Origin: Simmondsia chinensis
Taxonomy: Eukaryota; Streptophyta; Magnoliopsida; Caryophyllales; Simmondsiaceae
NCBI GenBank assembly: GCA_018398585.1
Contig: JAGTTD010000007.1
Span: 35,182,911 to 35,246,910, forward strand
Length of the DNA stretch: 64,000 bases
Direction of reading: 5' to 3'
Part shown: positions 2,415-61,302 of the stretch, piece after piece
Numbering within the stretch: position 1 is the first letter of the stretch
How the letters are laid out: the number at the start of each line of letters is the position of its first letter
Program-made: the position numbers and the translations under genes
The notes under the pieces: generated by a model
Seen by the model: only the letters and a program-made list of their open reading frames with translations
What the model was told of the DNA's origin: nothing
Databases searched by the model: none

Positions 2415-2532
2415 AAAAGGAACGTACCCAGTGCCTCAAGGGCTCCCGCCTACGCAGGGTCTGGGGGGGACGGATGTACGCAGCCTTCCCCCTTCAGGGT
2501 ATTAACCTGAAGAGAGGCTGTTTCCCAGTGTC
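2415..2532 (-). mobile_element. 5S-headed SINE copy 1, head missing, 43-bp TSD
   Basis: It contains only the 3' half of the family: on the minus strand, the purine-rich core, CCTGAAGGGGGAAGGCTGCGT, the CAGACCCTGCGTAGG block and GCACTGGGTACGTTCC. It is flanked by a perfect 43-bp direct repeat (2372-2414 and 2533-2575, beginning CCCTAATG and ending TATATTA). A truncated 5' end with an intact TSD is classic target-primed insertion. Confidence 0.85.
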
Positions 2533-3700: not shown

Positions 3701-4253
3701 AGTAGGAACAAATACTCAATTACTTGTTTCTAACATTGGATTGAGTTGTCAATAGGCAAGAGATATAGTTTGAATACGTCCATCTATTTTGTCTTATGGC
3801 AGTACATTCTGATTTGAATAAATACTTATTTCAAAAGTTTAAGATACTGGATAAAGGCTTAGGAATGATTTTATACTCTAACGTTGCCCCCTCATAGGAA
3901 TGCCAATTGGACTTGAAGCGTGAATAGTGAATATACCCATCTCATACATTGTACTTAAATTATATTCGTATTTAAAATGGAGGTTCTAGGGATTTGACTT
4001 CGTGACCACTTGGTCAACAGGACTCTAATACTTTGTCAAGAAACCAAATGTCTCAGAAGTTTAAACTGATGAGTAAAAGTCAGGAATAGTTTTATACTCT
4101 AACAAAGAAAACCTCCTACTGTTTTGCTCAAAATCAAATCGACTCCTTTAATAATTATTAGTTTGTAACTAGTAGACACCCTATTGTAATTTGTTCCTAA
4201 GTTATAGGCTTGTACATTTGTAAGTCTACGGCTCTTTACAACATAACACTATC
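3701..4253. other. Non-coding stretch, nothing recognised
   Basis: There is no long open frame, repeat or family motif that I can support. The phrase 'ttatactctaac' recurs twice (about 3871 and 4091) in a similar context, suggesting an old local duplication. Confidence 0.4.
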
Positions 4254-4396
4254 AGGTTGGGGGGTCCTCGGAAATAGTCTCTCGTCAAGGTCTCACCCTG
4301 ATGGGGTAAGGCTGCGTACATCTTACCCCTCCCAGACCCTGCGCAAGCGGGAGCCCTTGTGGCATTGGGTATGATGATGATGATGACGACGACATT
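4254..4396 (+). mobile_element. 5S-headed SINE copy 3, head missing, GAT/GAC tail
   Basis: This plus-strand copy starts at the core (GGTTGGGGGGTCCTCGGAAA) and runs through GTAAGGCTGCGTACATC, CCCAGACCCTGCGCAAGC and GGCATTGGGTATGATGATG. It ends in a GATGATGACGACGAC microsatellite tail. The 5S part is missing. The tail differs from the TTG tail of its subfamily relatives. Confidence 0.8.
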
Positions 4397-6240: not shown

Positions 6241-6497
6241 CACCACCATCACCACCACCAACAATAGACTTAGTGCCTCAAGGGCTCTCGTCTAAACACG
6301 GTTTGGGGGCGGATTTACCCAGCCTTAACCCTTCAGGGTGTTACTCTGCCGAGAGGCTGTTTCCGAGGACCTTCGACCTTATGGGGTTGGCAACATGAGG
6401 ACTTCCCAAGAGGTCACCCATCCTGGTACTACTCCTGCCCAAACACGCTTAACTTTGGAGTTGTAATGAGATTCAGTGCATTAGTGCCTGATAAATG
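6241..6497 (-). mobile_element. 5S-headed SINE copy 4, subfamily with TTG/GGT tail
   Basis: On the minus strand it starts near GATTCATTTATCAGGCACTA and continues through a diverged 5S block, the ACCCCATAAGGTCGAAGG core, and AAGGCTGGGTAAATCC. It ends in a TTGTTGGTGGTGGTGATG tail. Diverged direct repeats (around CTCACTCACACC on the left and CTCATTCACGCC on the right) look like an old TSD. It lies just 3' of the lipase gene and in the same orientation. Confidence 0.85.
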
Positions 6498-6557
6498 AAT
6501 CTTAACTCATTCACGCCATCAAGTGAAATCAAGAGAAGCCCTTTACCCTATCCGGGT

Positions 6558-6656: not shown

Positions 6657-9600
6657 CTACACAATGTCAGCATAAGAAAATTCCTGCAACTTGATTGAAT
6701 AAGGTTGCGTCTCGGGGATGTGAGAGAGAAGAGCGGGACCCAAGCGAGTTAAGTTACAATAATCTTGAGGACCGTGAGCCGAAACTCCGGGGATTAGCAA
6801 CCCAAATACCCTGAATATCTTCAGAACCCAACCTTCTTTGTAGTCCTTTCCTCTTGTAAATGGAAGTATGAAACCTCTAATCAGCTCCCATAACGCGGTT
6901 AAGTGGGCCGGTATGATCCAAAGTGGTGAGAAATAGTTCTTGTTTGGCTCATTTTCTAACACCTGCAATTTTGTATTTCACAATTAGCATATGATACTGT
7001 ATAAAAAAGCAACATTCCCAGTGCCCAAAGGGCTCCCACCTAAGCAGGGTCGGAAGGGGGGGGTTGGATGTACGCAGCCTTCCCCCCGCAGAGTGCTACC
7101 ATGGAGGGAGGTTGTTTCCGAGAACCTCCAACCTGAGAGTTGCAACACGAGGAATCCCCAGGAGGTCACCCATCTTGATACTACTCTCGCTCAAGCATGC
7201 TTAACTTCGGTATAAGGTTCACGTATACATCTAAGTAGGATTCTGTCCTAGTGGAAATAAGGGGAATTGAGGGGAACGATTGTCCTTTGCAGAATAAAAG
7301 TGTTGTTGAAGATATTTGAAAGATGTTACAGGAGTTTGATATGGTAAGTTTCTCATATATTTCAAGAAGGTAATTAGGCAGTTGAGTTGACTAGGTGGGG
7401 TCGGTTGGGTACAACTGTCAAGGGTAAGGGAGGATAGATGAAAGCATGCATATGTCAGGCACTTCATGAGATTATCTATCATGATATACTGTTTAGGGCT
7501 ATGTTCAGATAGTTCTGTTAGTGTTCTTCTATTTTATCTATGAGATGGGGAAGTAGGTTTGAGAACGCTGAAATGTGATTCTTCACCTAATATCTATTAT
7601 GGGTTTAAATGAGTTGAGCCAACTCGCAGGTAATTAGAAGCAGTTTTTTTTTTCTTTTTATTCGATTATTTATAGTACAGGTCTTGAAAAGCACGAGTAT
7701 ATAGAGTAGTAAAGCAAATACTTGTATTAGAAAGTGAATGGTCTTGGATATGGAGCCGATTTGTTATTTCTGTTAAAAAGCTTTGACTTGTTTTAAGTTA
7801 GAGTTGAGTTGAGTCCACTTGTTTGGCTAAGAAAACTAAGCGTAAACACGTAAAATTTGTGCCTTTTGGCTCATTAGTTCAAAGAACCAATGTTTAGCTA
7901 AGTTATGAATGTAACTATTCCGAGCTAAGTTTGAGCTTAAAAGGGCTTAAGTGAACCCAATTCAAGCCTCTAAGAATATATACCAGTCAAATTTAACTCG
8001 AAGATTGCCTAGTTGGGTTCTAACTCAATCAAGCCTAGCCCGTGTAGAGCAAAGCACCAGAGAGCTAATCCTCATGCCTTACAAAGCACAATCTCTACTT
8101 GACTTGACTTTGCTCATTTACGCCCCATTAACAAGACTAACAATACATGTAAAAGCACCCATTACTTAACACACACTCACATACGAGTTCTGATGCATGA
8201 ATATACAAAAGATAGGAAATAACGTACCTTCCCTTTGTATAGGCTATTATAGTAGAGGCAGGGCGAGAAGTGCTTATAAAAGAAGCACGTGTCATCGAAG
8301 GGAACTCGAGGCACAATATCATTACCATAAACAAACCTACCATGCTTGACTTTATAAGCCTTCATTTTGTGCACCATAAACTCCCCAAATCTCTCATCCC
8401 CAACCCTTGGTTGCCCAAAAGTGTAGACCCCTTCTAATCTCTCCAACAACTCTTCCTCCTCGTGTAACATCAACACAAACACGAACAAGATCGCCAGTGC
8501 CCCTCCCAGACTGTGTCCCGTTACTATGAACTTTGTCCTTTCGTTTTGTCGAACAATATCTCTTAGCTGTTGCCTGATGGTGTAATAGGCAAACTGGCGA
8601 GTCGGGTCCATGTGGATCTCTTTGGGCCAGCCCGTTCCCTTTTGTAGGCCTAGTGCTTTCATGAATCCGCTGTGAACCTTGCCCACCTTTTGTAGCTCAC
8701 ACCACGAGATGTCAAGGTCTGTGTTGATACCGTAAGCGTCGAAGGGGTTGGTGCCGGTGAACGAGACCACAGTCAGATTGGAGAAGGGATCTGGGCTGTG
8801 GAACATGAAGGCGTGGGTCGAGTTTGTTCCTTGGAAGTCTGTAACAAAATCATCTCTTTCAGAACAACTAAGAAGAGGACGACGATAACAACAACAACAA
8901 ACTCAGTGCCTCAAGTGCTCCAGCATATATAGGATCGGGCCGCGGGGGAGGGTGGGATGTATGCACCCGTACCCTTTCAGGATGCTACACTATAAGGAGG
9001 CTATTTTCTGGGAACAACTTAAAAGAAGAATTCAACCTAATTCAACAACCAGAATTTGGTGATGAAAAATATTTTCCGTTCCCCTAATATATATATATTT
9101 ATATTTTTTTAAGCTAACTACTAACTTTTCTTTAAGGAATTGTTTTGAGACTTAGGATGTAAGATCAAAACATAAATCGTTTTCTGTTTCATTATAACAA
9201 GGGAAAAACTTTTTGTCAAATCAAACAGAGCGTAAGTGATACCACCCTTGTGTAATACGGAAAATGCAAAATGGATATTTATTTTATGGTTATTTATGCC
9301 AAAGATTCATGTATTTTTCTCATTTTGTCAATTTAACCTATGTACTTTCAATTGTGTCAATTCAATCATTATATTACTCATATTGTGTTACTTTAGTCTT
9401 TTGGTCAAATTCAAGTTAAGTTATTAATGTAATTTTTAATGGCATAATCATGTTAGATGCAAATGACCCACTAAAAATCCACACCGTGACTCAATTTAAC
9501 CCATCCATGTCGAACCATTGAAAATTTTATTAAAAATATGACATAAATTTTACTCTAAGGATCAAATTGGCACAATATCAATTGTGTAGGGACTAAATTG

Positions 9601-12600
9601 ATGCTTTTAAAAATATGGAGGGTAAATTGACATAATATGTAAAGTATAGAGTCCTTTGGTATAAATAACCCTTTATGTTATATTTTATATTTCTAATGAT
9701 ATAACCTGCAGGCTTTACATGTGTTCAAAATAAAAATAATATAATAAAGTTTAAAAATGATATTATATTAATCAAATTTTTAAAAAGAATATTTTAGTAA
9801 TTACCTTTTACAAATTAATAAAGTTAACATAAAAACACTAAAACAACATAAAGCAACATTTTCAATGCCCCAAGGGCTCCCGCTTAAGCAGGGTTTGGAG
9901 GGGTGAATGTATACAGCCTTCCCCTTCAGGCGAGAACCCTCAATCTGAGGGGTGCAATACAAGGACTTTCCAGGAGGTCACCCATCTTTGTACTAATCTC
10001 GCCTAAGCACGCTTAATTGCGGATTTTTAATAGGATTCAATGCTTGCGTGTTGGCACCCTCTTAGGTTAACATAAAAACGCTACTAAAGTCAATATCTTT
10101 ACCGTTCCAGAACTTGTATACGTCCAGTATATCCATCTGCATAACAACATTGAAAGATGAGAATGAAACGCATACATGAATCTTAACCTAACAATTTAAA
10201 ATCTCATAATAGAATTTCTACAATAAAAAAGCATAAATTTAAATTTAAAACATCATTAATTTAATTATTAATGTAATTTAAGACAAATAATATGATAAAG
10301 ATATCAACCCTTAAAAATTTTGGGGTGAAAAATTCATTAACAAGGGCATCGTAAAAAATAATTATTTTTCGACCATATTTAGTTTAAACAAATTTTAATC
10401 TTTCATTATATGCACAGGGGTGGCGTTCTTATGAGAGTGAGAACGTGAGAGGGGCGAATCCTAGTCCTCCATTGTAATGGACGGCCAAGATTTGTTGAAC
10501 ATTAAAAAAAATTAACAACTTTTGACCAAGATTTGTTGAGTATTTAAAAAAAAAACAATTTTCTTCTCTTTTCTTTTCTTTCTTTTCTGCCCCATGAATA
10601 GGGTATGGGCTGTAAATTATTTTTTTTAATGTTCAACAAATTTTAGCCGTCTATTACAATAGAGGGTCAGGATTCGCCCCCTCTCACGCTCTCATCCTCT
10701 CATAAGAACATCACTCTATGCAAGAGCGGGTGCTCGAAAAGATACTAAAAAATATTTTTAAGATTAGCTTCCAAAAAATGCTATTTATCCAAATGACATT
10801 TAAGTCATCTTTAATATTTTTTATTCTTTTTTTATTTTTAAACTTTTTAAAAAAAGCAAATATCAATGTAAGCTTTTCAATACATGTATGTATGTTTATT
10901 TATTTAAAATTCATAATATTTGTATACTTATAACAAATAAATTAAATTATTTATACACAAACTTAGACTTTATTATTAGAACTCTTTAATTATATTCATT
11001 TGTTCATATAATGTCGAACGTAAACTAATACCATCGAATTAATATTGAAAACACCATATAATATGTTAAATTAAATTATTTAATTGAAATTTTTACATTA
11101 AATTATTCCTTAAATTATATTTTTAATTATTACTAGGCATTCAATTTTTTGAAAAAGAGTAAAAAAGAATAAAAAATAACATAAATGTTATTTGAGTAAA
11201 TATTTTTTTCGGAATGTTAGTTTTGAAAATATTTTTCTTTTATTATTTGGACACTAGCTCCAATGCAATGACTATAATTTAAAATATCTAAAAATTTTAA
11301 CTTTATAATATCTAAATAATTTGAGAAAATTATTATTATGAAAACAAAAATTATTATTGCTAAAATGATAACATGACTTACTGTAAATAATAGTCATAAA
11401 ATTACCTTAAAAATAATAATTTTTCTCTAATTATAATATTACCGCATTTTTATAAAGACAATAATTAAATTATGTTATTAAACATTACATTGGAAATATT
11501 TGAATGCATAATTTTAAATCCATAATACAATAAAGAAAGGAAAAGACAAAAATATCACTATATATTATTATTTACAAGCAACATTTTTAGGGCCCTAAGG
11601 GCTCCCGTGTAAGCAGGGTCTGGGGTGGATGTACGCAGTCTTCCCCCTTCAGGTTACTACTCTGAAGAGAGGTTGTTTTCGAAAACTCCCAACTTGAGGG
11701 GTGCAACACGAGAACTTTTCAGAAGGTCAGTCATTTTGGTACTATTCTTATCCAAGCATGCTTAACTTTAGAGTTCTAATAGGATCCGGTACTTGCGTAT
11801 TGATAAAACTTTTCGATACTATATATTATTATTTATGATGGCTTTAATTACGTCACTAATGTAAATGTCCTTACGTCAATTATAGATATTTGCCATACCC
11901 CCTTGTCAATGTCATTTTACACGTTTTTTAATGCATAAAATATATTTGCAAAAACATATAGTCTTTATTTAATTTTTTTTTTGAACAGTACAAACGCCTT
12001 AAAGGCAGAAAAAGGGGGGATGCCGGGCCTCGAACACTGGATCCCGTGGGTGGCAAACGCCTACCCAACCATTTGGGCCAGGAGGGCTTTGGCTCTTTAT
12101 TTAATTTATGTCATAAATAGTCTCCATATAGGGTTGATGATAGAAATGGCAGTTAGGCCCGAATTTTTCAGATATCCATCATATTCGATCTATTTATGAC
12201 TGATTTAGATGCGAAAAATAAATTTTAAATAAATTTGAATTTAGATGCTGATAAATGAGTTTTGAATCGGGGTTTGATTTGGATGGCAATAAATCTAACC
12301 TAGACTTGTCCCAAATTCGACTTGAAATTATATTTAGTGTATAAAGATTATTGGTTAAGAGTTTTCTGAGTAATTGTCTAATATTATATTACTATAATTA
12401 TAAATATTAGATAAAAAAGAAAAAGACGTAATAGTTAATCTAAATATTAACTTTAAATGTACAATTATTACATTATTATTATATATATTAATAAATAAAT
12501 TACAATATTATAATTTTTTTTAAGTTTTAAATGAGTTATAGATTTAAATCGAGTATCTGTTTCATCCAATACATTTAGATTTGGGTTAAATTTTTATAAA

Positions 12601-15600
12601 ATAAATAATTTTTTTTAGATTCGGTTGGGGGGCATGGATCAGATGTACCACTGCTAATTATGCTGCGTGTGTTCTTGACAAAAATACCCATCTTTCTTCT
12701 GCCCTTTAATTGCTTGTCTGCATCTTTTACTCTTTTTTTATTATTTTATTTGTTTTTATATTTTATAGCATAAATATATTAATTATTTAGATATACATAT
12801 ATAAAAAGGAAAGGAACATATTCAGTGCCTCAAGGACTCCCGCCTACGCAGGGTCTGGGGGGAGAGGATGTACGCGACCTTCCCCCTTCAATAAAAAGGA
12901 AAGGAACATATCCAGTGCCTCAAGGGCTCCCGCATACGCAGGGTCTGGGGGGAGCGGATGTACGCAACCTTCCCCCTTCAGGGTGTCAACCTGAAGAGAG
13001 GCTGTTTTTCAGTGCTCCCAACCTGAGGGTGAGGACTTCCCAGGAGGTCACCCATCTTGGTACTACTTTCGCCCAAACACGCTTAAATTCGGAGTTCTAA
13101 TGGGATCCGGTGACGGCGTGTTGATACCCTCATATATACTATAATTAAAAGATAATTAACTATAAAACTAAAATTAATTAATTAGTCATTATAATTATAG
13201 TTTTATTTTATATATATTATATTAATTTTTTTCCTTTTATAAAATATAAGTCTTTCACTTAAACTGTAAAAAAAAAAAAAAAAGTCTTTCACTTGAAGGT
13301 AACAAATCCGTCTCGACTCAGAAATCTAACAGGATCAATACGTAATTCGACCTAATCTAAAACGACAATTTGCCTTAAATAATTAAGTCAAAAATTGAAA
13401 TGACCTGACCTAAATTCACCCAACTCACTTTTCACTTAACTTAAAAATCACCGGATATTCAATTTGGCCTTATTTGACTCACCATTGACCTGAACCATCC
13501 TGACCAAAATTTCACACAAATTCAAATCATTGCCATTCCTAATAGAGGATAAGGTTGTGTACATTTCATATTTCCTATGCCAAGCCATAGCGGGGAGTCT
13601 CCCTGAGGCCGTGAGTTTATTATTGTTGTTGATAAAAATCAAAAGAATTTTCAATACATATGTATGTGTAATCTTTAAACTTATAATATTATTTAGATTA
13701 TAAAAAATAAATTAAATTGAATTAATTTAATTTAAATTTTTAGTAAATAATTTAATTTAATTTATTTTTTATAATTAAGAAAATATTATTATTTACACCA
13801 GAGGTCTTTTTACATTACTTATTATGTTAATTTAGTATTTATACTTTTAATTGCGTCAATTTAGTCCCAGAATAATTGATATTATTTCAATTTGGTCCTT
13901 AGAATAAAATTTATGTCAAATTTTTAATAAATATTTTAATAATTCGGCTATAAGTTAGTTTACAATGAGTCAAGGGATGGATTTTTAATGGATTACTTGC
14001 ATCTAACGTGATTGTACCTTTAAAAATTATGTTAATAACTTAGATTGAATGATCAAATTGACACAATATGAATTATAGAGAAATTAAACTGATATAATTA
14101 AAAATATAATAATTAAATTAATATAATAAGAAAAGTATAAACATCTTAGGTGTAAATAACTCTTTGAAAAATTATTCATGTATTAAAAGTTGGGCACTAA
14201 AATTCAATTTTCTAAAAAAAAAAAATAAAAAGCTAAATAATAACATAAATATCATTTAAAAAAATATTTTTATTAAAAGTTCATTTTAAAAATAGTTTTT
14301 AATTTAATATTATTTCGGGATTTGGCCCCACCATAATTCTATTTGGGGGGGGGGGGGGGGGGTGCCCCCACCTACTATCGGCCTTTAAATTCCAATAACA
14401 TAATAGAAAGATACCGTAAAATTATAATATATATTTTTTTGCTAATACTTATACCAGAACAAAAATATTAACATTAAAGTATTTTCTTAAAATTTTTTTG
14501 ATTGGAATTTTACAAAAATTTAAGTCTACTATTTACTATAAGTTATATTATTACTTTGATAATAATATATTTTGTCCTAATAATAATAATACTATTTTTT
14601 TTAATTCTTGTCCTAACAAATTAATACTTATTTTTTGAATTATGTCATTTTGGAAATTTATTTTAATATAATATTTTTATTGTTAAATTTTCACCGAGCC
14701 TTTTAGGCCTAATTTATGGAGTTGGTATTCATGAGATCCACATATAATCTTAAGCGAGTTTTCATCTTAAAATTAATTGACAATAGGTAGAGTAACCTAC
14801 AAGACTTATAAATTAATTTTTTACTCTCACAACTCCATGTAGGATTCATATTCAACTCATATGTGGAGTTCTTACTCTTAATCTCTCTCTCTCTCTCTAT
14901 ATATATATGTTTATATATTTGTCTAAATCACAAAATTAATACCGAATTCACGTGAGGACCATCTTGCGACTATTTATGAATAGAAACTAGCTTGAAATAA
15001 TTTAAGTATATAATAACCTACAATATAAATAATGCTTTACTTTAAAAACATAATCTACCTATCCAAAAATAAAAGGAAAAAAAAATCTAGGGCAATTACG
15101 ATATTATTTTTTGTTTGTAATTTTTATTTTTGAGAAACTAAGAATTTTATATTTTAAAATTATTTTTTTGTTTTTATTTTTGTTACAATTATAATAAAAT
15201 TAAAAAAAATAAATTTTAAAACATCATTTTCAATTTTCAAAGAAAATTTAGTTTGAGGTTTGGTATAAATTTAAAGTATTCTTTGAACATAAAAAATATA
15301 TTTTACATATCTGAAACACTTTTTAAAATATTTTTAATATTTTTTTATTAGTCAAAATATTTTTAAAAATATTTAGAACATTTTTAAAGATTTAAAATAT
15401 TTTTTCAAAATTTAGAGAACAATTTAGCTTTTTAAAATGTAAGTATCAAAATTTTTTAGACAATTTTTAAAATTGGAGTTAGGTAAAGAGTACTTGAAAA
15501 AACATTAAATTAAAAATAAAAATATGTCATGAAAAACATTTTAAAACCCCATTTACCTAAAAAATATATTATCCAATCTCAAATTACTTGAACAAATTTT

Positions 15601-19609: not shown

Positions 19610-19690
19610 TGTGTATTTTTGACTGGGTACCGGGAAATTAGGGTTTGAGAGTGGAGTGCTACTGCATGGGTTGGGTTGTTTGGCGGGGTT

Positions 19691-34200: not shown

Positions 34201-34508
34201 ACACCTGGATGGCCCAAACGGTCATGCCACAGGGTGAACATTCTGCAATCAGTTAACTTTTGGTTAACTACTGTATTTGATTCAATCGGGTTTATGTAAG
34301 TATAGTATAACCCGGAAGAAAGTGCTGACAATTTTTTCACTATTTTCTTTCTTCCTGAAGATTCTTTATCGCCCTCATTTATTATCTCAATATGATAACC
34401 ATTTCGACAAATATCTCGAAAACTGATTAGGTTTCTCTGTGAGTAGTTTTGTCCCTTTAGGGAACATAACATGTGCTCTTCCGGAGCCTTCAACCAAATT
34501 TGAAACAC
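31261..34508 (-). pseudogene. pol of Copia element 1 (integrase, RT, RNase H)
   Basis: Integrase (33705-34508) shows the LWHDRLGHPG zinc-binding start and YIMVLIDASTRCSHV core. RT (32091-33527) shows YKWVFVRNRNKKNEV, KARFVAQGFSQRPGIDYEET, LMDVVTAYLYG and SLYGLKQSGRMWYNRL. The active-site YVDD reads YVED. A frameshift near 32085 leads into MKDLEKTKYCLGL and RNase H (31261-31800, ending with CEDNAACIAQIKGG). Several frameshifts and the YVED change make it inactive. Confidence 0.85.
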
Positions 34509-34739
34509 CTGATATAAAAATCTTCTGGTTCTTTAATGAGTGTGAGAATTCCCAACGATTCTCTTAACAATATTTATACCCGGATGACTCAAACAGTCAT
34601 GCCATATAATAAAAGCCTTTTGGGTCTGTTAACTTCTTGTTAACTATCCCAACGAGTATATCAGAATTAAATATTATTTCTTCAGGAAATATGATATATG
34701 CTCTTCTGGAGCCTTTAATAAAATATTAAATAGATTGGC

Positions 34740-36584: not shown

Positions 36585-36599
36585 CGTGGCAGGTCTGAA

Positions 36600-39821: not shown

Positions 39822-39854
<33 letters not shown>

Positions 39855-41410
39855 ACCGGTGTCCAATGTCCATCCCATGCATGCCCATCTTAAGGATGGG
39901 ATTCGCAAATCCAAACACATTCTGTCCCTTAGCTTGGTTGTTGTGGTTCAGGAACCTACTTATTGTTCTCAGGCAGCTAAGAATCCTCAGTGGCAGGAAG
40001 CCATGGCTGAGGAATTCAACGCTCTCATTCAAAACCAAACATGGGACCTCGTTCTTGCCTCTTCTTCTCAAAATGTGGTCGGTAGTACTTGGAAGTACAA
40101 AGTCAAGTATAAACCTGATGGCTCTGTTGATCGGTTTAAGGCTCGTCTTGTTGCTCAGGGTTTTCACCAGCGTGAGGGCCTTGACTACTTTGAAACATTT
40201 AGCCCTGTTGTTAAACTGACCACCATCAGGTTCATCCTTGCCCTCGCTATCACTAACAAGTGGCCCATTCGCCAACTCGGCTTTAAAAACGCCTTTTTAC
40301 ATGGTTTTCTAAATGAAGAGGTATACATGAGTCAGCCTCCTGGGTTCATCCACCCGAAATTTCCCACACATGTATGCTACCTGCGTAAGGCTCTGTATGG
40401 CCTTAAGCAAGCACCACGAGCTTGGTTTCATATTCACTTTTCATACATCGGTCCCCTGCTGCCATTGTGTGTCTCCTACAGTACGTGGATGACATTGTCC
40501 TCACTGTTTCCGAACCTTCCCTACTTGCTTGCCTCGCTGCCTCTCTTTCAACCTAATTTGCAATGAAAGATCTCAGCCCCCTTCATTACTTCCTTGGCAT
40601 CAAAACCAAACGCACCTGCCATGGCCTTTTCCTTTCTCAACATAAGTACACCCTTGACCTATTAGGTTGGTATGACAAGCTTGAGGCTAAACCTGTACAA
40701 ACCCCCTAACCAGCTCGGGAGCAACCTTCTGTGGGTAATGGGTCTCTACTACCTGACCCGACCGAGTTCCGTAGTGCGGTAGGTGCTCTTCAATACCTAA
40801 CCATGACTTGTTCGGACATTGCATACACGGTTAACCTTGTCTCTCAGTTTATGCACGCTCCCACTACTTCCCATTGGTAGATGGTTAAACGCATCCTCCG
40901 ATACTTGAAGCTCACGCCTGACCACGGCCAGACCATCGCACTAGGCTCCTGCACCTCTATTATCGCATATGCTGATGCTGACTGGGGTGGCTGTCCTGAC
41001 ACGTGTCGCTCCACAACAGGGTTTGCCTTGTTTATCGTGGCGTGCTAAGAAGCAGCCTACAGTTGCCAAGTCTTCCAATGAGTCTGAATATGGAGTTGTT
41101 GCTAAGGTTGCTGTTGAATGTGACTGGATCCGCTATCTCATGCGTGACCTAGGCTTGCGTCACTCAGGCCTGATCGTTGTGTACTGTGAAGACGTTTCTG
41201 CTATTTACCTGGCTACTAATCCTATTTCTAATGATCGTAATAAGCACGTCGACGCTGACTTTCACTATGTTCGTAAGAAGGTTGTTAAGGGTGATATCAA
41301 GGTTCGATACACTCCTACCATCAAATAGGTTGCTGACATATTCACCAAGGGGTTGGCTAGTGATCGCTTTCGCTACCATAAAGTCAATCTGCATGTTGGT
41401 CCCTCTCGCA
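38567..41410 (+). pseudogene. Integrase, RT and RNase H of Copia element 2
   Basis: Integrase shows LWHRCLGHLGHAVLDTL, HCHACCLGKSRCLPF and the core piece CPDTPRQNWVAERKH. RT (39859-40566) shows [39 protein letters not shown] and [13 protein letters not shown]. The LDVKNAFLHG aspartate region reads [10 protein letters not shown], so one catalytic Asp is lost. YVDD survives in another frame at about 40483. RNase H ends near VRKKVVKGDIKVRYTPT. A 32-C run (39823-39854) lies in the integrase-RT linker. Confidence 0.85.
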
Positions 41411-43075: not shown

Positions 43076-43625
43076 CAAATGCAGATCCAGATCGAGATTG
43101 ACTATCACACATATCTCTTAGCTACCTTCTTAGACATTGACCATGGGTAAAGTTAGATGTTTTAGCTTGGCTTTGGCCATACAGTGCAACTATATCGAGA
43201 TATTCTTTCCTCCGCTTCAATTCTTTCCTTTTCTTTTTGCGGTTTCTTACTCTTTTAAGAACCTCTTTACATACTTTTCTATGGACCCAGTCCTCATAAT
43301 TATTGAAAAATAAGGTTGGTGTCCACATTTTACACACCCACAAAATTAAGTTAATTATTTGTCAACATCTATAAAGATTTGGGAGAAGAAAACTTTTCCT
43401 TAAATATAAAATAAAAATTAATAAACAAAGGATCATATTTTTCTTGCTTCTAATATACCAATCATTACAAATACTTACAAAACTCAACACGTTTTGGATT
43501 GTTTAAATAATTTGAATACACAATATAGAAATTACATAATGCAAATGCAATCATAGTTGGTATAATAATATGAATGACACTTCTGATATATTTTGAGTTG
43601 CTCAACAATTAACAAAATATATGAA

Positions 43626-43863
43626 CAAAAGCAACATTCCAGTGCCCCAAGGGCTCCCGCCTAAGTAGGGTTTGGAGGGTCGATGTACACATCCTTACCC
43701 CTTTAAGGTGCTACCCTGGAGAGATGCTATTTCCGAGAAGCTCCAACCTAAGGGGTGCACGAGGACTTTCTAGGAGGTCGCCTATCTTAGTACTACTCTC
43801 CTCTAAGCAAGCTTAACTTTGGAGTTTTAATGGAATCTGGTGCTTACGTATTGATGCCCTCTT
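43626..43863 (-). mobile_element. 5S-headed SINE copy 10
   Basis: On the minus strand it starts AAGAGGGCATCAATACGTAA and carries AAGCTTGCTTAGAGGAGAG and GTAGCACCTTAAAGGGGTAA. It ends CACTGGAATGTTGC. It is full length but diverged. Confidence 0.85.
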
Positions 43864-43878
43864 AATACCGATCATGAA

Positions 43879-47747: not shown

Positions 47748-48425
47748 GTTTTTTTTTTTTTACACTAAAAATCACATAAATTTTAAATACAGTTTTAAAA
47801 AATCACCAATATTTTCTAATTTTTTTAATGTCACATCTAAACTTTTTAAATTTTTTAATATCATACCTTAATATTAACGACGTTAACATCTGTTACTTCC
47901 TACAGATGTGAAATTAAGAAAATATTTCTTTACATATAAAAGTATTTTTTTTAAATAATACAAATTTTTTTTAAATTTTAAAATAATTTTTTAAATATTC
48001 AAAGTATTTTAAATGTAATATAATTTTCTAAAATTAGAGTTCATTTACCAAGCATTAAGGAACCTAATCCCATTAAAACTCCGAAGTTAAGCGTGCTTGG
48101 ATGAGAGTAGCATCAAGATGGGTGACCTCCTGGAAAGTCCTCGTGTTGCCAACCCCATAAGGTTGGGGATCTTCGGAAATAGCCTTTCGGTAGGGTTACA
48201 CCCTGAAGGGGTAAGGCTGAGTACATCCACCCCTCCTAGACCCTACTTATGCTGGAGTCCTTGAGGCACTGAGTTTGTTGTTATTGTATAATTTTTTGAA
48301 ATTATTTTCCCTTTTTTTTTCAAAATTCATATTAACAAAAACTAATTATTGTTAGACATTAAAATATTTAGAAAAACTTAAGGACGACATTAAAAAATTT
48401 AAAATTTTAGATAATTTTGTTAAAA
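47748..48425. mobile_element. Foldback MITE, family C, with SINE copy 11 inside
   Basis: Left-arm motifs TTTTTTAATGTCACATC and CCTTAATATTAACGACGTTA pair with right-arm motifs TTGTTAGACATTAAAATA and GACGACATTAAAAAAT. It is related to 16123-16539. A 5S-headed SINE splits it. Confidence 0.55.
48037..48286 (+). mobile_element. 5S-headed SINE copy 11, plus strand, TTG tail
   Basis: The copy reads directly: TTCATTTACCAAGCATTAAG, CCCATTAAAACTCCGAAGTT, AAGCGTGCTTGGATGAGAG, GATGGGTGACCTCCTGG, AAGTCCTCGTGTTGCC, the CCCATAAGGTTGGGG core, GTAAGGCTGAGTACATCC, and GAGGCACTGAGTTTGTTG. It is flanked by an 18-bp duplication with two mismatches (48019-48036 and 48287-48304). Confidence 0.92.
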
Positions 48426-48548: not shown

Positions 48549-48793
48549 TTATAACAACACCAGACCTAGTGCTTTAAATGCTCCCATATAAATGGGATCT
48601 GAACACACGCAGTCTTATCCCTTTAGAGAGTAACCCTGCTGAGAGGCTGTATCTAAGGACTCCCAATTTTATAGGGTTGGCAACACGAGGACTTTCTATA
48701 AGGTCACCCATCCTGGTATTACTCTTGCCCAAGCACGCTTAACTTTGGAGTTCTAATAGGATCTGGTGCCTTAGCGCCTGGTAAATCAACAAT
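48549..48793 (-). mobile_element. 5S-headed SINE copy 12
   Basis: A 16-bp TSD (AATCATTACATAATGT at 48533 and AATCATTACATGATGT at 48794) flanks it. On the minus strand it starts TTGATTTACCAGGCGCTAAG and ends GGTCTGGTGTTGTT. It is tail-to-tail with copy 11. Confidence 0.9.
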
Positions 48794-49625: not shown

Positions 49626-49690
49626 GGCTGCTTGATGATAAAAGGAACATACCCAGTGCCTCAAGGGCTCCCGCCTACGCAGGGTCTAGG
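49626..49690 (-). mobile_element. 5S-headed SINE copy 13, 3' part (split by hAT)
   Basis: On the minus strand this is the 3' end (ACCCTGCGTAGGCGGGAGCC, GGCACTGGGTATGTTCC). Its 5' part resumes at 52893. Confidence 0.88.
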
Positions 49691-52600
49691 TAGAGGTGGC
49701 CAACGGGCCGGGCCGGCCCGGAAACCGCACCAGCCTGGCCCGGCCCGAGGTCCCCTGGGCCGGGCCTATATTTATTTTCGGTCGAGCCCGGCTTGGGCCC
49801 CGGGCCCAACGGCACTAAAAAGAGCCCTTGGGCTCGTTTTGAAGAGCCGTTCAACAGCTCTTTTATTAAAAAAAAAATTTATATATTTTTTTTTCCTATA
49901 AATACTTAAACCTTTCCAACTTATTTTCTCACCAATTCTTCAATCCTCTCTTCTTTCTCTATACATTAATCATCTCCCATCTTCTCTAACTTTGCTAATT
50001 GCAAAAATTGTGCTCTAAAGTTCGAAGTTCGTAAAGTATTTGGGTGAAGTTCCAATTTCATTGTTCTCTCGTTTCGGTAATTTTAGTATCGCAATTTTAT
50101 TTGATTCACATTTTTAGTTATTTAATTTGCATTACTACTTGCATTTTATAAATACTAATCACTTATACTAATATGGCACACAACTCTTCATCATCCTCTG
50201 GAGCCGGTCGTGCTAGTTCTAGCTCTTCTCGGCCACCCAGAATCCCTAAAAGGAGTAGAATTGTCTTACTTAATACTGAAGAACGAGCTTTTATACAACC
50301 ACACCCAACACCCCCATACACTGATGATAGCATAGACTATGACTTTTCACAATAGCAAGATTATCATGAGTCAGGTGGTGGTGGGATTGGAGACTTACAA
50401 ACTGAGGAGGAACCCACCCCCACCACTGTAGCCCAGGCTGAAACTAGTACCTCTGCTAGCAGGGGTACAACTAATGGGGTATGGAAGCACTTTACCCTTA
50501 ATAAGACAACTAGTAAAGCAACTTGTAAATTATGTGACCCACCTAAGGATTTTAGCCATCAACCTGGTAGTGGGACGGGCACATTAAACATTCATATACT
50601 TAGGTGCCACCCCGAGCAATTCCCAGAAAAGAGCCAACAACGTCTAGTATAGCAAGTGACCGGTGCACTTGCTAATTTTAGGTTCTCTAAGGAGAGCAAC
50701 CGAAAGGGGCTAGCTAAATATATAATTATGAGTGAAAGGCCTTTTAATACCGGCGAAGACCCAAATTTCGTCAACTACCTCCAACGAAATGTTAATCCCG
50801 CCATTGTGAGGATTCCTCGAAACACCGTAAAGTGGGACGCTTTTACGTTGTACCACGGGATGAAAACTGGGGTCTTCACACATTTTGCGACGAACACGAG
50901 CATGTTCTCGTTGACCTCGGACGTATGGACGTCGAAACCCGTCCAACCTTATATGTGCATAAAGGCACACTGGACCGATGAATCCTTCATCATGCAAAAG
51001 CGGATAATTCATTTTGGACTTTTAGATTGCCCCCACAATGCCGAGGTAATTACGGGTGTGATTATGTCGGCAGTCCGCGACTGGGGCATAGAGCGACGTA
51101 TCTTCAGTATTACGTTTGACAATGCTACCATTAACACTGCAGCCGTTACACATTTAATTAGGCAAATGAGACCCATGTTAGGTGGGAAGTGTTTCCATAT
51201 TCGTTGCGTTTGTCACATTTTGCATTTAATGGTAACGGATGGTTTAGATCTCATAAAAGCATCCCTTATCACCTTAAGATCGGTAATAATATCTGTAAAA
51301 TTATCCAGCACTAGAAAAAGAAAATTTAAAAATTTATGTAGGTTGCATAACATAGAATATAAACAATTCAAATTAGACTCCCAAAATAGGTGGTCGTCTA
51401 CGGTAGAAATGTTAGAGCGCCTTCTACCATACAAAGACGTTCTAATGGAATACGCCCAGTAAAATCGTGTAGAATGGAGCGATTACAACCTGGCCGGTAT
51501 AAATTGGGAGACAATAGATCAAATTTGTAACTTTTTTAGCATGTTTAAAGAGGTAACAACATTTTTTTCGGGTTGCTACTATCCGACCATGCCTCAAGCA
51601 ATATCAAGATTGCTTCGATTCAGGCAATGAAAGAAAAGTTTGCCAAATATTATTTTGAACTACCTCTTACATACCGCTTTGCAACTATTTTAGACCCTCG
51701 TTGTAAACGCTCGGGTTTCAACTTGTTTTGCCAACATTTTTTCACGTATTTGAATCCTACTCTTAATATCGACACTTTCATTGCCGATGTCGATAACAAC
51801 ATGCATAGTTTATTTTCTCAATATTCCCATCGATTAGCTTCCAATAATCCTAGTACTGTTGCAGTAGGATCTTCCACATCTAGTGGAAGTAGTTCACACA
51901 CGTCATATTCGTGGAAGCTGTTGGAGCAATTTACGCCCACAGCAGCCCCCATATCATGTGATGAGTTAGATTATTATTTACGGACACCGATGGTCCATAT
52001 TTTCGGGCCACCGGCCAACCCGAAATTTGACCTGTTACAATGGTGGAACACAAACCAAACCCAGTATCCCGTGCTTTCCACCATGGCACGTGATATACTA
52101 AGTTGTCCGGTGTCTTCAGTAGCATCGGAGTGTGCTTTCAGCCTTGGTGGCAGGTTGCTTGGAACGAAGAGGGCGAAGCTATCGCCATCAAGCTTGGAGA
52201 TTTCCGTGTGCTTGAAGGATTGGCTGCTAGCAGAGGCAAGAGATCAACAGAGAATGAAGCTGGATTCATCGAGCGATGAAGAAGACTACCGTACAACCGA
52301 TACCTCAAATGATGGCCTAGATACCCCCGAAGGCGACTGATATCAACACTTTTGTATGTCAATTATTTACTTTTGAATATTAACGTCCAAAGACGACTGC
52401 ACCCCCCATATACCTCAAAAGACGACCGCACCCCCCATATGTCAAACTTTGTATTTGTACTTATATTTGTTATGTTATTTATGTACCATTATTTTTTTTG
52501 ATAAGATATTTACCATTACTTATTGTGTATTTTATTTTATTACATATATTTAATGTATATTTAGCATTATTAGTGCTTGAAAAAAAAATGTACTTATATC

Positions 52601-53099: not shown

Positions 53100-53803
53100 G
53101 GTTATTTACCCCAAAAGTTCTTATACTTTGGTCGCTGTACTAATTTAGTAGCTATATTTTTAATTGTGTTAACCTACGAGGGTACCAACACGCAAGCACC
53201 GGATCCCATTAGCACTCCAAATTTAAGCGTGCTTCGGCAAGAGAAATACCAAGATGGGTGACCTCATGAGAAGTCCTCGTGTTGCACCCCTCAAGTTGGG
53301 GGTTCTCGTAACTGCCTCTTTTCAGGGTAGCACCCTGAAGGGGGAATGTTGCATATATCCACCCCCAGACCTTGCTTAGGCGGGAACCATTGGGGCACTA
53401 TATATGTTGCTTTACTTTTAATTGTGTTAATTTAGTCCTTATACAATTTATATTGTATCAATTTGGTTCTTATAGTAAAATATATGTTAAATTTTTAATG
53501 AAATTTTGAATGGTTTGGCCATGAATTTGGTTAAATTGAGTCAATTATGTGGATTTGTAATAGATTACTTGCATCTAAATTAACCAAGGTACTAAATTGC
53601 GTGGTTGTCCCAATAAAAATTGACCAAGGTACTTGCATCTAACATGGTTGTGTCATTAAAAATTGCTTTAATAACTTAACTAAAATTTGACCAAGGTACT
53701 GACACAATTTGAATTGTATGGGGATTAAATTGATATAATTAAAAGCACATGGAGTAAATTGACACAATGAGAAAATGAAAGGGACCTCTAATGTGAATAA
53801 CCC
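53100..53803. mobile_element. Foldback MITE, family B, with SINE copy 14 inside
   Basis: GGTTATTTACCCCAAAAGTTC on the left pairs with GAATAACCC on the right. Inside, TTTTAATTGTGTTAATTTAG and AAATTGATATAATTAAAAGC are inverted. A plus-strand SINE splits the left arm at 53173. Confidence 0.6.
53173..53415 (+). mobile_element. 5S-headed SINE copy 14, plus strand, best reading copy
   Basis: It starts CCTACGAGGGTACCAACACG, then GCACCGGATCCCATTAGCAC, TTAAGCGTGCTTCGGCAAG, AGATGGGTGACCTC and AAGTCCTCGTGTTGCACCCC, which follow plant 5S rRNA from about nucleotide 24 to 118. The 3' part reads TAGCACCCTGAAGGGGGAAT, CCCCCAGACCTTGCTTAGGC, GGGGCACTATATATGTTGC. A 15-bp TSD TTTTAATTGTGTTAA (53158-53172 and 53416-53430) is perfect. 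It is head-to-head with copy 13. Confidence 0.93.
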
Positions 53804-57437: not shown

Positions 57438-59856
57438 TATTAAGATAATATCTGTATTGATATTATGTTGAGAATATTCTGTAATTATTCATACTCTTTC
57501 TATTATAAATATATGCCTCAGCAATCCTATTGGGTATGCTTACTAACTCTCATTTTCACATGGTATAAGAGCATACCAAACCCTAAACATTAATCCATTC
57601 TCCTCTTAAAAAAAAAAGGGCTTGCTGAAACCCTAACCCTAAACCCAAACACACAGCTGCCGCTGCCATCACAGGCGACCTCCCCGCTCCTCTCTCGCCA
57701 CCTGGTCGTGCTGGCGTCTCCGCCATTGCTCCAGCCCCAGGCTCGCTGTGGCCCATCGTCGCTCCGGTTGGCCCTGTTCTCTGATTTGTGGCTGGTCCTC
57801 TCGCCATGGCTCCGACCTACCTATTTTGAGGTCGACCCTCTCCCCCAGCGCTTGTTCGCCGGTCGCCACTGCTTCGACCTCCATGTCCGCCTTCTCTTCC
57901 ACCTCCTTTTCCCTCACTCTCTCCAATATGGCCATATACCCTCCCCTCTCATTGGTCACCGGTTCTCTCCACCGGCCACGGCACCCCTCGCCTCCTCGAT
58001 CGTGTGCCGTGACCTCTTCTCCACTAGTGGCTACAGCCGTTGTGCTGTCGTCTGCCCCTCCTGCCTCTGGTGGCTTCTCCCTACCATCACTTCCCTCATC
58101 TTCCATTGATCTGGTCCCGTCCTCTACATCTCACAGTCTCTACTCCTCTGGGTATAATCTTGGACTCCGCCTTTCATCCTTTAATTTATCCAGTTACTCG
58201 TCCCCTCTCATGGCCAGGGCGTGCCTCTCGCGACCCTCCCTCCCCATGTAAGCCCTCTTCCCCCTTCCTCTATTACTAATCTCGTTATAATTAAACTGGA
58301 AACACCAACTGCTTATACCACTTCGCAAGAACAAGCATCCGTGGTTCTTCGTGCCATCGACTCATGGGTTTCGTTGATGGCTCAAACCCTTGTCCTCCTA
58401 ATCAAATCCCCACACCCACAGGTCAATACATCTCGAACCCTGATGCTATAAACTGGTCTTGCATAGACCAAAGTATGAGGGCCTGTCTGTCTGCTTCCCT
58501 GGCACAATCGGTCCTTAATGATATCATACATCACCCCACATCTTGTGAAATGTGGAACGCCCTAGCTAAATGCTTTCGTGATCACTCTCTTGCTAAGGAA
58601 TTTGACTTACGTTCCCAACTTGTCACCTTACGCAAAGACAATAAAACCATGACGGCCTATCTCACTGAACTTAAGACCATAACTGATGACCTAGCCGCCA
58701 CAGTTTCACCGGTCTCAAATCGAGAGCTCCTCCACTATGCCCTATTCGGTCTTCCGCCTGAATATGCCGCATTTAACACGTTCACCTGGCAGTCGTCTCA
58801 TGATCTTTTCTTTGAACAATTCAAGACTACCCCATTAGATGAAGAAGCTGCGCTCTTTCGCATTCATGCTCGCTCTTCTACAGATCACAGTCATGCCCTT
58901 ACTGCTACTAGTGCGCCGTCGGATTCCTCGGGTTCTGGTCGGGGTCGAGGAGGGCGTGGTCATAAGAATCATGGACGTAACAACAACCATCGCCATGGGA
59001 ATTCTGGGAGCCGTGGACATCACGGTCAGCCCTCTCACCAGTCTCCGGGTATAGGTATGGCTCCCACTGGTGCTCCTCCTCCGTATCCACAGAACTGGGG
59101 TCGCTCTGCAGGTACGCATGCTCGTCCCCCTCATGATGGTATACTCGGTTTTGGTCCTTTAGTTTGTCAGATTTGTCATCAAGCGGGTCTTGCTGCTTCT
59201 CTCTGCCCTCACCGTTATGTCAACTCGGACCTCTCCCAATCCCTCTCGGCCATGTCTGTCACAGACCATGCCGATCCTACATGGTACCCTAACTCTAGGG
59301 CGTCTAATCACATGACTTCCAACTTAGGTATTTTAACTAAACACACTGTTTACCACGGTTAAAAATTGTTACAAGTTGGCAATGGGTCTTTACTACAGGT
59401 CACTCATGTTGGGCCTTTGAAAATTTGTACTAAAACGCTTGACCTTTTGCTTCCTAATATAGTGATAGTCCTTGGTCTCACATACAATCTATTGTCTATT
59501 AAACAGTTGTGTCGGGATAATAACTGTGTTGTTGAGTTTGACTCTTCTTCCTTTTGTGCCAAGGACAAGGCTACGGGGACGCCACTCCTCAAGATACACA
59601 GTGAAGGCCCCTTATACGGGTTTTCTCCTCATCCCACTGGACTCGTTGCACGGACAGTCACGGCTGAGCTATGGCATAGGCGCTGAGATCATTTAGGGAA
59701 CTCTGTTTTAGATACATTATGTATTAGGGATAATATCTGTATTAATATTATGCTGATTATATGCTGAGAATATTTTGTAATTATTCATACTCTTTCTATT
59801 ATAAATATATGCCTCAACAACCCTATTGGGTATGCTCGCTAACTCTCATTCTCACA
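57438..59856 (+). mobile_element. Non-autonomous Copia derivative (element 4), short-LTR family
   Basis: The 5' LTR (57438-57560, 123 bp) and 3' LTR (59722-59856, 135 bp) belong to the same family as element 2. The 5' LTR lacks 12 bp (GATTATATGCTG region). The perfect 5-bp TSD is GTATT (57433-57437 and 59857-59861). The primer site TGGTATAAGAGC follows the 5' LTR. The interior runs from gag to the start of integrase and then joins the 3' LTR directly, without a polypurine tract. Confidence 0.88.
57620..59721 (+). pseudogene. gag-protease of Copia element 4
   Basis: An open frame of 332 codons (58364-59362) carries MGFVDGSNPCPPNQI, WSCIDQSMRACL, EFDLRSQLVTLRKDNKTM, a GRGRGGRGHKNHG basic region and the knuckle CQICHQAGLAASLC, whose conserved His is Leu. 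The protease motif reads WYPNSRASNHMTSN, so both Asp and Gly of DSG are lost. The last recognisable piece is LWHRR and the GNSVLDTLC-like integrase start, then the 3' LTR. The product cannot be a working protease. Confidence 0.85.
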
Positions 59857-59874
59857 GTATTGGCTTAAACATAA

Positions 59875-60230
59875 TGTGTGTCGACACATACTTGGTGTCG
59901 ATATATTGCAAAATCACACTTTAGATTTTGTGTGCCAACCCATAGATACTATGTGTCAACACACAATATTATAGAAATTTAAGTTCCAAAGACTACAGCT
60001 ATGTGTCAGCAAACAGGTTTGTGGGAGTGGAAGTTATGTGTATCGACACACAATCCCAGTTTTTGGGACTGGAGTTTTTGTAATATTGTGTGTGGACACA
60101 TAGATACACAGATACACAATCCCAAAAAGCTTTTTTTGCTTTTTTTTGTGGACACACAGATACAAACAACATCTATGAGTCGACACAACATCTAGAGAGT
60201 GATTTTGTAATATATCGACACATATTTTGA
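59875..60230. repeat. Cluster of TGTGTCGACACA-like palindromes
   Basis: About ten copies or variants of TGTGTCGACACA, such as GTGTGTCGACACAT, GTGTCAACACAC, GTATCGACACAC, GTGGACACAC and GAGTCGACACA, lie within 355 bp in the loop of the large foldback element. Spacing varies from 16 to 50 bp. Confidence 0.75.
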
Positions 60231-60735
60231 AAATATATGAAAAAATATACTTATATATCCTCAAAATCATGTTGTACATTAGTATTTTTTAGTGAAAATA
60301 TATTAAATTAAGTAAAGAATACAAATATACCAGCAAGTGTTAGATACAATGCAGTGCTTAAAAAAATATTTTGTTTAGTTCAACACTGAAAAATTTATTT
60401 TGACTAGGATAATACTTTTTTTTCCTTTACTTCTGTAAGCATAGTGCTAAAATTTTTTACATATAGATATTTGGTATTCTATTAATTATTTTTCCATTAA
60501 AGTTATCTTGTTTTCCCCACTTGCAAGGCGGCAGTTGGGATTAACTCTCCACATTTGGGCAGAAAAAAATTGGTTTTCTCCTAGTGTATTGCTAAAGAAA
60601 TTTATTAATACTAATAGAATACTTTTCTTTTTAACTTGGCAAATATAATGCTAAAAAAATTCATATATGCCTAATTTGGTATTTTTTTTTTTATTATCAT
60701 TCTTCTTAATATATCCATATAAGAAAAAAAAAATA

Positions 60736-61302
60736 ACTTAATAATTCAATTATCCCCAACAAATTTCATATTTTAAATGATGTATAATATCATCAGTTCT
60801 GTTAATTTTAATTTAAAATTGGGAACGACAGCATAATAAGGGTAAATTCCATATTTGTATCTTCAGATATGGTAAAATAATTTTGTAATCCACAAACTTT
60901 ACATAACAATTTTTTAACCAAATTTGGGTAAAATAATATTTTAATCCAAACGCAGTTAAATCTTCTACAAAAATTCATAAAATGACTAAAATATCATTAC
61001 TAAAAATATTTTATACTAAACAAAAAAAATAAAAATAAAAATTCCCTCATTCTCTTCTCTCTCCTCCTCCCCATTTCTCTCTCCTCTTCCTTTGCACTGC
61101 CGCCTCCCACTACTGTGGTCGCTGGAGGAGGGCAGTGGAGGAGGGGTTGGTCATCTGGAATAGGCGATTGGCGACCCAGATAAAGGTGGGTAGAGAGAGA
61201 AGCATAGGAGATGGCCAAGTAGAAGTGGGAGAGTGGGGGTCAGGGGAGAAGGAGAGTTGGAAAATGTGGTTGCGGTTGAAGAGGGTGGCATTGGGACGGA
61301 GG
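60736..61302. other. Intergenic stretch
   Basis: It is AT-rich to 61040, then purine/pyrimidine-biased, with CT runs followed by GGAGGAGGGCAGTGGAGGA. No gene or named repeat is supported. Confidence 0.4.

What the first reader, a model, noticed from the sequence alone, without database searches (positions are those of the whole stretch)
53173..53415. SINE family with a 5S rRNA head and a plant tRNA-SINE-like 3' end, at least 14 insertions
Seen: at least 14 insertions (2415, 2766, 4254, 6241, 7006, 8885, 9841, 11575, 12801, 43626, 48037, 48549, 49626/52893, 53173) share one design. The 5' half follows plant 5S rRNA from about nt 24 to 118, including the internal promoter region. The 3' half has GCTGCGTACATCC, CCCAGACCCTGC and GGCACTGGGT blocks and TTG, GAT or T-rich tails. 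TSDs of 15-20 bp are seen for seven. Known: 5S-headed SINEs (SINE3 type) were described in fish and some mammals; plant SINEs are tRNA-headed, and many share a 3' Angio-domain. Inference: a 5S head joined to an Angio-like tail is a chimeric family I have not seen described in plants.
Basis: partly seen in the sequence, partly recalled or inferred. Interest (0 to 1): 0.88.

Follow-up and report, generated by a model that had tools for sequence, protein, structure and literature searches.

The report
Plant 5S-headed SINE riding a LINE
A flowering-plant genome carries an estimated tens of thousands of copies of a short mobile element made of a nearly whole 5S ribosomal RNA joined to the tail of a LINE retrotransposon of the same genome, a head type for which no plant SINE was found in the open papers searched.

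Summary
The core observation holds: the window has 16 family matches, 11 with a 5S rRNA head. Of 50 headed copies tested in window and genome, 34 have flanking repeats of 11-23 bp, against 1.5% of mismatched flank pairs: retrotransposed copies, not 5S rDNA fragments or Cassandra LTRs. In the host genome (unnamed, 831 Mb), 25 random 10-kb stretches hold 17 headed copies, about 57,000 genome-wide (bootstrap 27,000-96,000). The head spans nearly the whole 5S rRNA with its promoter elements. The 3' half is not, as proposed, an independent Angio-SINE tail: it is the 3' end of an RTE-type LINE of the same genome, present in 7 of 7 LINE 3' ends examined, up to 87% identical, with TTG-rich tails. So this is a 5S/RTE chimera, most likely born by template switching onto 5S rRNA and moved in trans by that LINE. 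One 5S+SINE double copy may show that step. Ten library searches listed no plant 5S-headed SINE; SINEBase and Repbase could not be searched. Pol III transcription and LINE dependence are inferred.

The parts
53172..53417 (+). Index copy, type C: 5S head plus LINE-type 3' half, CTTT tail; 15-bp exact core repeat TTTTAATTGTGTTAA on both sides
   Evidence: Rfam 5S 51.3 bits
52915..53104 (-). Type A copy, 5S head present, 3' part lost at a poly-C/G tract; no repeat found
   Evidence: Rfam 5S 66 bits
2766..2973 (-). Type A copy with internal deletion of the 3' half; perfect 20-bp repeat at 2746-2765 and 2974-2993
2415..2532 (-). 5'-truncated type A copy without 5S head; perfect 43-bp repeat at about 2372-2414 and 2533-2575
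4228..4391 (+). Headless copy with GAT-rich tail and about 21 nt of unrelated 5' sequence; 14-bp perfect repeat; possibly a LINE 3' fragment (inferred)
6257..6504 (-). Type B copy (5S-like 5' end); weak 20-bp repeat with 4 mismatches
7002..7252 (-). Copy with partial 5S head; no repeat found
8888..9014 (-). Headless copy with TTG tail; imperfect repeat
9847..10067 (-). Type C copy with an internal deletion; 18-bp repeat, 1 mismatch
11574..11817 (-). Type C-like copy; perfect 18-bp repeat
12897..13138 (-). Type A copy, best 5S score in the window (71 bits); no repeat found next to it
12801..12890 (-). Second unit of a 90-bp duplication of the 3' half of the preceding copy
   Evidence: 94% identical 90-bp units
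43624..43867 (-). Type C-like copy; no repeat found
48033..48287 (+). Type B copy, TTG tail; 18-bp repeat, 2 mismatches
48551..48793 (-). Type B copy; 16-bp repeat, 1 mismatch
49638..49693 (-). 3' fragment only

Best explanation
A SINE family consisting of one near-complete 5S rRNA (nt 1 to about 118) fused directly to the last about 125-130 nt of an RTE-type LINE of the same genome. SHOWN: sequence anatomy, flanking repeats, dispersal, high copy number, identity of the 3' half with the LINE 3' end. INFERRED: the 5S head supplies an internal RNA polymerase III type-1 promoter (box A, IE, box C); the transcript's 3' end is recognised by the LINE's endonuclease/reverse transcriptase, which copies it into new sites by target-primed reverse transcription; the family was born when that reverse transcriptase, having copied the LINE RNA 3' end, jumped onto a 5S rRNA. 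Later subfamilies (A, C) changed the 5' 27 nt and swapped the (TTG)n tail for a CTTT tail.
For: 5S head: Rfam hits (11 hits in 6 of the 20 random stretches then held, all on headed copies); against the host's own 5S rDNA (arrays on C8) the type B head has 107 matches, 8 mismatches and 4 gaps of 119, type C 104, 7 and 8, and nt 28-106 match 74-77 of 79. Against a plant 5S recalled from memory: box A 15/15 in B and C, IE 5/6 and 6/6, box C 18/18 and 17/18, while nt 1-27 of type C diverged. Retrotransposition: 34 of 50 headed copies with repeats of score 10 or more, 33 of these starting within 8 bases of the model's 3' end; null 1.5% of 2450. Copy number: 32 matches (17 headed) in 25 random stretches, 0 in the reversed control; 1,776 copies of the 39-nt 5S/body junction within 3 mismatches, reversed control 0. 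LINE: endonuclease and RT domains; 15,283 first-look candidates, of which 90 were scored, at 84-100% identity; the SINE 3' half lies at the 3' end of 7 of 7 LINEs examined (L161, L142, L145, L176, L177, L178, L179); for L176 the LINE coding end was known before the downstream DNA was fetched. Identity B vs LINE L142 110/128, C vs L142 108/124. Template switch: L167 has a full 5S copy, then CTTTACAAAA, then a type A SINE, with TATATTAAA next to both outer ends.
Against: No transcript or mobility data. 16 of 50 headed copies show no repeat above the threshold. Against the host's present 5S the heads differ inside box C (position 95 in A, B and C; position 81 in A and B) and B in IE (position 67). 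Left of the junction the aligned LINE and SINE letters agree at 17-63% over 6-27 gapped positions, highest for L142 (17/27 with B), so the exact junction is not sharp in that one LINE. The 9-bp repeat around the L167 double copy lies in an AT microsatellite and could be chance. A and C tails are CTTT, not TTG. The RTE clade rests on architecture, tail and database neighbours, not on a tree. 5 of 16 window copies lack the head.
Confidence: 0.9

Rival explanations
1. One reading: a 5S head replaced the tRNA head of a plant Angio-domain tRNA-SINE, which supplied the whole 3' half; the LINE link is secondary.
For: The body aligns to a dicot tRNA-SINE recalled from memory (local scores 31 and 34 against a maximum of 28 in 2000 shuffles). 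Six of 8 fetched junction variants read GGTTCGAGGC, a B-box-like string.
Against: The LINE 3' end explains the 3' half at up to 87% identity. No tRNA-headed partner seen: 0 for two patterns and none recognised in the 8 of 13 B-box hits fetched. The B-box-like string was selected by the pattern and may be two chance changes.
Confidence: 0.07
2. The copies are LTRs or solo LTRs of Cassandra, the plant retrotransposon with a 5S domain in its LTR.
For: Cassandra carries 5S in plants (PMC10853983, PMC10886601, passages read).
Against: Repeats are 11-23 bp and variable, where an LTR element gives a short fixed one (5 bp for Helenus of plants and Ajax in PMC10886601; for Cassandra recalled); the starts are not the TG expected of an LTR (recalled rule); the non-5S part is a LINE 3' end.
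Confidence: 0.01
3. Dispersed 5S rDNA fragments or pseudogenes moved by DNA-level events.
For: The host has 5S arrays on C8 and a near-intact stray copy on C29.
Against: Same 5S/body junction in 1,776 places within 3 mismatches; flanking target repeats.
Confidence: 0.01
4. The 5S part came from a Cassandra LTR rather than from 5S rRNA itself.
For: It contains 5S-like sequence; no Cassandra of this host was compared.
Against: The head runs from the 5S 5' end region to the 5S 3' end and the junction sits there, as expected for copying of the RNA.
Confidence: 0.05

Closest known systems
Ped-1 SINE of springhare (5S rRNA promoter, BovB tail; Table 1 of PMC3747384, passage seen)
   Same: 5S head joined to the 3' end of a BovB (RTE-type, recalled) LINE
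   Different: Mammal; independent origin; different LINE
SINE3 / DeuSINE / AmnSINE1 and lepidopteran HaSE3 (passages of PMC3747384 and PMC10886601; PMC3272025 search listing only)
   Same: 5S-derived promoter head
   Different: Animal families; vertebrate ones have CR1 or RSg-1 tails; no plant family in the passages seen
TS SINE of tobacco (PMC3747384, passage seen)
   Same: 3' about 100 nt shared with an RTE LINE, TTG tail
   Different: tRNA head (recalled); Solanaceae
Angio-SINE superfamily (Seibt et al. 2020; title in reference lists and one passage of PMC9033089 seen, paper not held)
   Same: Plant SINEs; 3' end looks similar to what I recall of the Angio-domain
   Different: The review passage calls plant SINEs tRNA-derived; the domain sequence could not be checked
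Cassandra TRIM (passages of PMC10853983 and PMC10886601)
   Same: Plant retroelement with 5S promoter
   Different: LTR element; this one is non-LTR with 11-23 bp repeats

Membership tests
SINE (non-autonomous non-LTR retrotransposon) | Short, noncoding, dispersed in many copies | tested here: met
   About 245 bp; 17 headed copies in 250 kb random sequence; 1,776 junction matches
SINE (non-autonomous non-LTR retrotransposon) | Variable-length target-site duplications | tested here: met
   34 of 50 headed copies, 11-23 bp, null 1.5% of 2450
SINE (non-autonomous non-LTR retrotransposon) | Transcribed by RNA polymerase III | not testable with these tools
   Promoter elements largely conserved, no expression data
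5S-headed SINE (SINE3 class) | 5' part derived from 5S rRNA with box A, IE, box C | tested here: met
SINE/LINE pair with RTE clade | 3' end shared with a LINE of the same genome | tested here: met
   7 of 7 LINE 3' ends examined
SINE/LINE pair with RTE clade | LINE belongs to RTE clade | tested here: inconclusive
   Endonuclease plus RT, TTG-rich tail, nearest database proteins plant RT frames, catfish at 46-50%; no clade tree made
Angio-SINE superfamily | 37-bp Angio-domain at the 3' end | not testable with these tools
   Defining paper not held; recalled sequence only
Angio-SINE superfamily | tRNA-derived head (plant SINEs as described in PMC9033089) | tested here: not met
   Head is 5S
Vertebrate SINE3/DeuSINE | CR1- or RSg-1-type tail (PMC3747384 table passage) | tested here: not met
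   Tail is this genome's RTE-type LINE
Cassandra TRIM | Short fixed target duplication of an LTR element (5 bp, recalled for Cassandra) | tested here: not met
   11-23 bp variable repeats
Cassandra TRIM | Two LTRs with primer-binding site and polypurine tract | not tested
   No paired units were looked for systematically

The most novel reading that the evidence does not exclude
RTE LINE 3' ends are the common docking module of many plant SINEs, including what is called the Angio-domain, and any pol III RNA can be turned into a SINE when the RTE reverse transcriptase jumps onto it; in this lineage it jumped onto 5S rRNA, made a family of tens of thousands of copies, and occasionally still fuses fresh 5S rRNA to existing copies (L167). 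Such 5S SINEs would be candidate donors of the 5S promoter found in Cassandra LTRs.
Probability: 0.4. Interest if true: 0.82.

Novelty: new variant of a known kind. Interest (0 to 1): 0.68.

Why it matters
Plant SINEs are described as tRNA-derived (PMC9033089, passage). A 5S-headed family with tens of thousands of copies, and its LINE partner in the same genome, would extend that rule and add to the few plant SINE/LINE pairs (PMC3747384, passage, counted three in flowering plants in 2013). It makes two open points testable: which LINE moves plant SINEs whose tails are not poly(A), and whether Cassandra's 5S domain could come from a SINE insertion, as Kojima (PMC10886601, passage) says has been speculated.

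Tried and rejected
Searching viral contigs for tail motifs gave 102 and 9 stretches, taken as chance and not examined. One genome-contig scan gave 0. ARAGORN found no tRNA in the window or in the 8 fetched B-box-like loci. A motif scan for LINE reverse transcriptase in the window and L113-L159 showed, by eye, only LTR-type frames; it missed the LINE remnants in L142, L145 and L154 that the later LINE query found. The idea that headless copies form another SINE head type was dropped when two of them proved to be LINE 3' ends. One of 48 matches in window plus random stretches starts inside the 5S part (model position 97). The host species was not identified: among 120 listed of 2048 lipase matches identity is 53-66%; for the PPR frame the best full-length match is 64%, partial ones 71% over 78% (Amaranthus) and 75% over 30% (Quercus). 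The frequency of 5S+SINE double copies could not be counted: that search did not complete. A one-mismatch pattern for LINE-like junctions did not complete either.

Caveats on counts: random stretches were drawn from the 17 of 35 contigs whose lengths I knew, weighted by length; the first 25 of 60 drawn were fetched. The 27 genome copies L113-L139 were among the best hits to one window copy, so they favour young type C copies. One headed copy (L148_6) was dropped from the repeat test because its flank was cut. Of the paper searches, two looked for sequence strings and one search listed 20 of 755 papers; what I saw are listings with abstract starts, and passages of four papers.

Full report
What is in the window. 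A model built from the repeats finds 16 matches in 64 kb (again). Rfam's 5S covariance model independently recognises the 11 headed ones, 9 above its gathering score and 2 below; five matches have only the 3' part. The index copy at 53172-53417 is a full copy with a 15-bp exact core repeat on both sides. The copy at 2766-2973 has a perfect 20-bp repeat and the headless copy at 2415-2532 a perfect 43-bp repeat.

Where the window lies. It is part of contig C2 of an unnamed 831-Mb genome in 35 contigs. Its lipase exon matches named flowering-plant proteins, at 53-66% identity among the 120 listed of 2048 matches; a PPR frame from L119 has 64% at full length, 71% over 78% and 75% over 30%. The host is most likely an angiosperm; its species was not identified.

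Retrotransposition. For 50 headed copies with enough flank (27 among the best genome hits, 11 of the window, 12 of random stretches; one dropped for a cut flank), 34 have a flanking repeat of score 10 or more, 11-23 bp long; 33 of these begin within 8 bases of the model's 3' end and one lies 25 bases further, behind a T run. Among 2450 mismatched pairs of flanks 1.5% reach that score. This is the mark of target-primed reverse transcription and speaks against Cassandra LTRs and DNA-level 5S fragments.

Copy number. Twenty-five random 10-kb stretches hold 32 matches, 17 of them headed; the reversed sequences give 0. Scaled to the genome this is about 106,000 matches (57,000-166,000 by bootstrap over stretches) and about 57,000 headed copies (27,000-96,000), with 2.2% of the sampled bases. 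The matches include LINE 3' ends, so only the headed figure is a SINE count. The 39-nt junction between 5S and the 3' half occurs 1,776 times within 3 mismatches, 0 times in the reversed control. First looks, which are not counts of copies, gave 51,838 candidates for the 5S model and 7,823 for the index copy.

The head. Host 5S rDNA lies in two arrays on C8, with units of about 437 and 421 bp. Against the unit of the first array that I fetched, the type B head has 107 matches, 8 mismatches and 4 gaps of 119; type C 104, 7 and 8; in nt 28-106 the identity is 74 and 76 of 79, and 75 and 77 of 79 against the second array. Inside box C the heads differ from the host at position 95 (A, B, C) and 81 (A, B), and B differs in IE at position 67. 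Against a plant 5S sequence recalled from memory, box A is unchanged, IE differs at most at one base and box C at most at one base, while nt 1-27 of type C has drifted. Host and SINE share T39, where the recalled plant 5S has C39; the host has T95 where the SINE and the recalled sequence have C95. This suggests an origin from the host lineage's own 5S before its latest changes; it is an inference that depends on the recalled sequence.

Subfamilies. Clustering of 51 headed copies separates type B (5 copies, mean pairwise divergence 24%, 5S-like 5' end, TTG tail) from a large group with types A and C (44 copies, 18%, CTTT tail) and two single copies. B looks oldest, with the caveat that 27 of the 51 were picked by similarity to a type C copy.

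The 3' half is a LINE 3' end. Locus L161, a random stretch, contains a LINE with endonuclease (PF03372) and reverse transcriptase (PF00078) reading frames, and the SINE 3' half lies at its 3' end, followed by TTG repeats. Searching the other loci with this LINE found coding remnants in L142, L145 and L154; in L142 and L145 the SINE-like 3' half lies about 300 and 260 bases downstream on the same strand. For L154 the stretch ended inside the LINE, so I fetched the continuation, expecting the segment there: it is present about 196 bases after the coding match, E 5e-28, with TTG repeats. Three further LINEs, the next by rank, also carry it: 7 of 7. Identity over the segment is 110 of 128 (B), 108 of 124 (C) and 104 of 125 (A) with L142, and 71-83% with the others; left of the junction agreement is 17-63% over 6-27 gapped positions, highest for L142. 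The LINE is abundant: 90 scored matches at 84-100% identity out of 15,283 first-look candidates. Flowering-plant RTE LINEs are reported to end in (TTG)n or (TTGATG)n, and nearly all L1 LINEs in poly(A) (PMC3747384, passages seen), so RTE is the best assignment; among the 120 listed of 3597 protein matches named plant entries have 47-59% identity, an unnamed one 61%, and catfish proteins 46-50%.

A snapshot of the joining step. At C29, locus L167, a near-intact 5S copy is followed by CTTTACAAAA and a type A SINE, and TATATTAAA stands immediately outside both ends of the pair. The simplest reading is that the reverse transcriptase finished the SINE RNA and jumped onto a 5S rRNA. The repeat is only 9 bp and lies in an AT microsatellite, so this single case is suggestive, not proof. 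How often it occurs could not be counted.

Headless copies. In window plus 250 kb random sequence, 28 of 48 matches start in the first 30 model positions, one starts at 97, and 19 start at 113 or later. Three of the 19 are shown to be LINE 3' ends (L161, L142, L145). Of 16 headless copies tested for repeats, two start right at a long repeat and so are truncated copies (43 bp at window 2416, 24 bp at L148_7652), and three have 21-50 extra bases between repeat and body (window 4249, L149, L147_4234); these may be LINE 3' fragments, which was not tested one by one.

Comparison with known families. Ten searches of the open-paper library (two of them for sequence strings) and passages of four papers show 5S-headed SINEs in vertebrates, insects and a fungus, but list none in plants; [quoted passage not shown] The Angio-domain paper was not held. 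The closest analogue in build is Ped-1 of the springhare, 5S plus a BovB tail (PMC3747384, table passage). Absence from these listings is not absence from print: SINEBase, Repbase and most subscription papers could not be searched.

Verdict. The feature is real, abundant and retrotransposed. Its mechanism follows from its parts: a pol III promoter from 5S rRNA and a recognition tail from a LINE. What is new is the host kingdom, the identified LINE partner and the possible snapshot of head capture; the principle is known from animals.

Noticed in passing
L167 (G000:C29:34924300-34925299), 435-797: Near-intact 5S copy fused to a type A SINE, with TATATTAAA on both outer sides; possible template-switch product.
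   Followed up: partly
G000:C8 4.685-4.702 Mb and 6.396-6.414 Mb: Two 5S rDNA arrays with units of about 437 and 421 bp; the one 5S sequence read from each differs at a few bases.
   Followed up: partly
window 12801-12980: 90-bp tandem duplication of the SINE 3' half (94% identical units) at the end of one copy.
   Followed up: no
window 2372-2575: Perfect 43-bp target repeat around a truncated copy, much longer than the 11-23 bp of the headed copies.
   Followed up: no
L168-L173: Six copies with 5S sequence read GGTTCGAGGC, a tRNA B-box-like string, at the 5S/body junction; found by a pattern that selects for it, so chance is possible.
   Followed up: partly
L176, 1314-1440: A second family member just downstream of the LINE, flanked by repeats of TTTGTAAGTCTATT; seen by eye in the printed sequence.
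   Followed up: no
window 8177-8902 and 19244-19819, minus strand: Class 3 lipase exon (Pfam; OBL1-like by one database name) and a second frame that I read as a lipase exon, without Pfam hit.
   Followed up: partly
window 50653-52340 (+); 32091-34532 (-); 36599-40566 and 57594-63566 (+): hAT transposase remnant (Pfam on 51549-52337) and several Copia-type fragments (Pfam on four of the frames, the rest by eye).
   Followed up: partly
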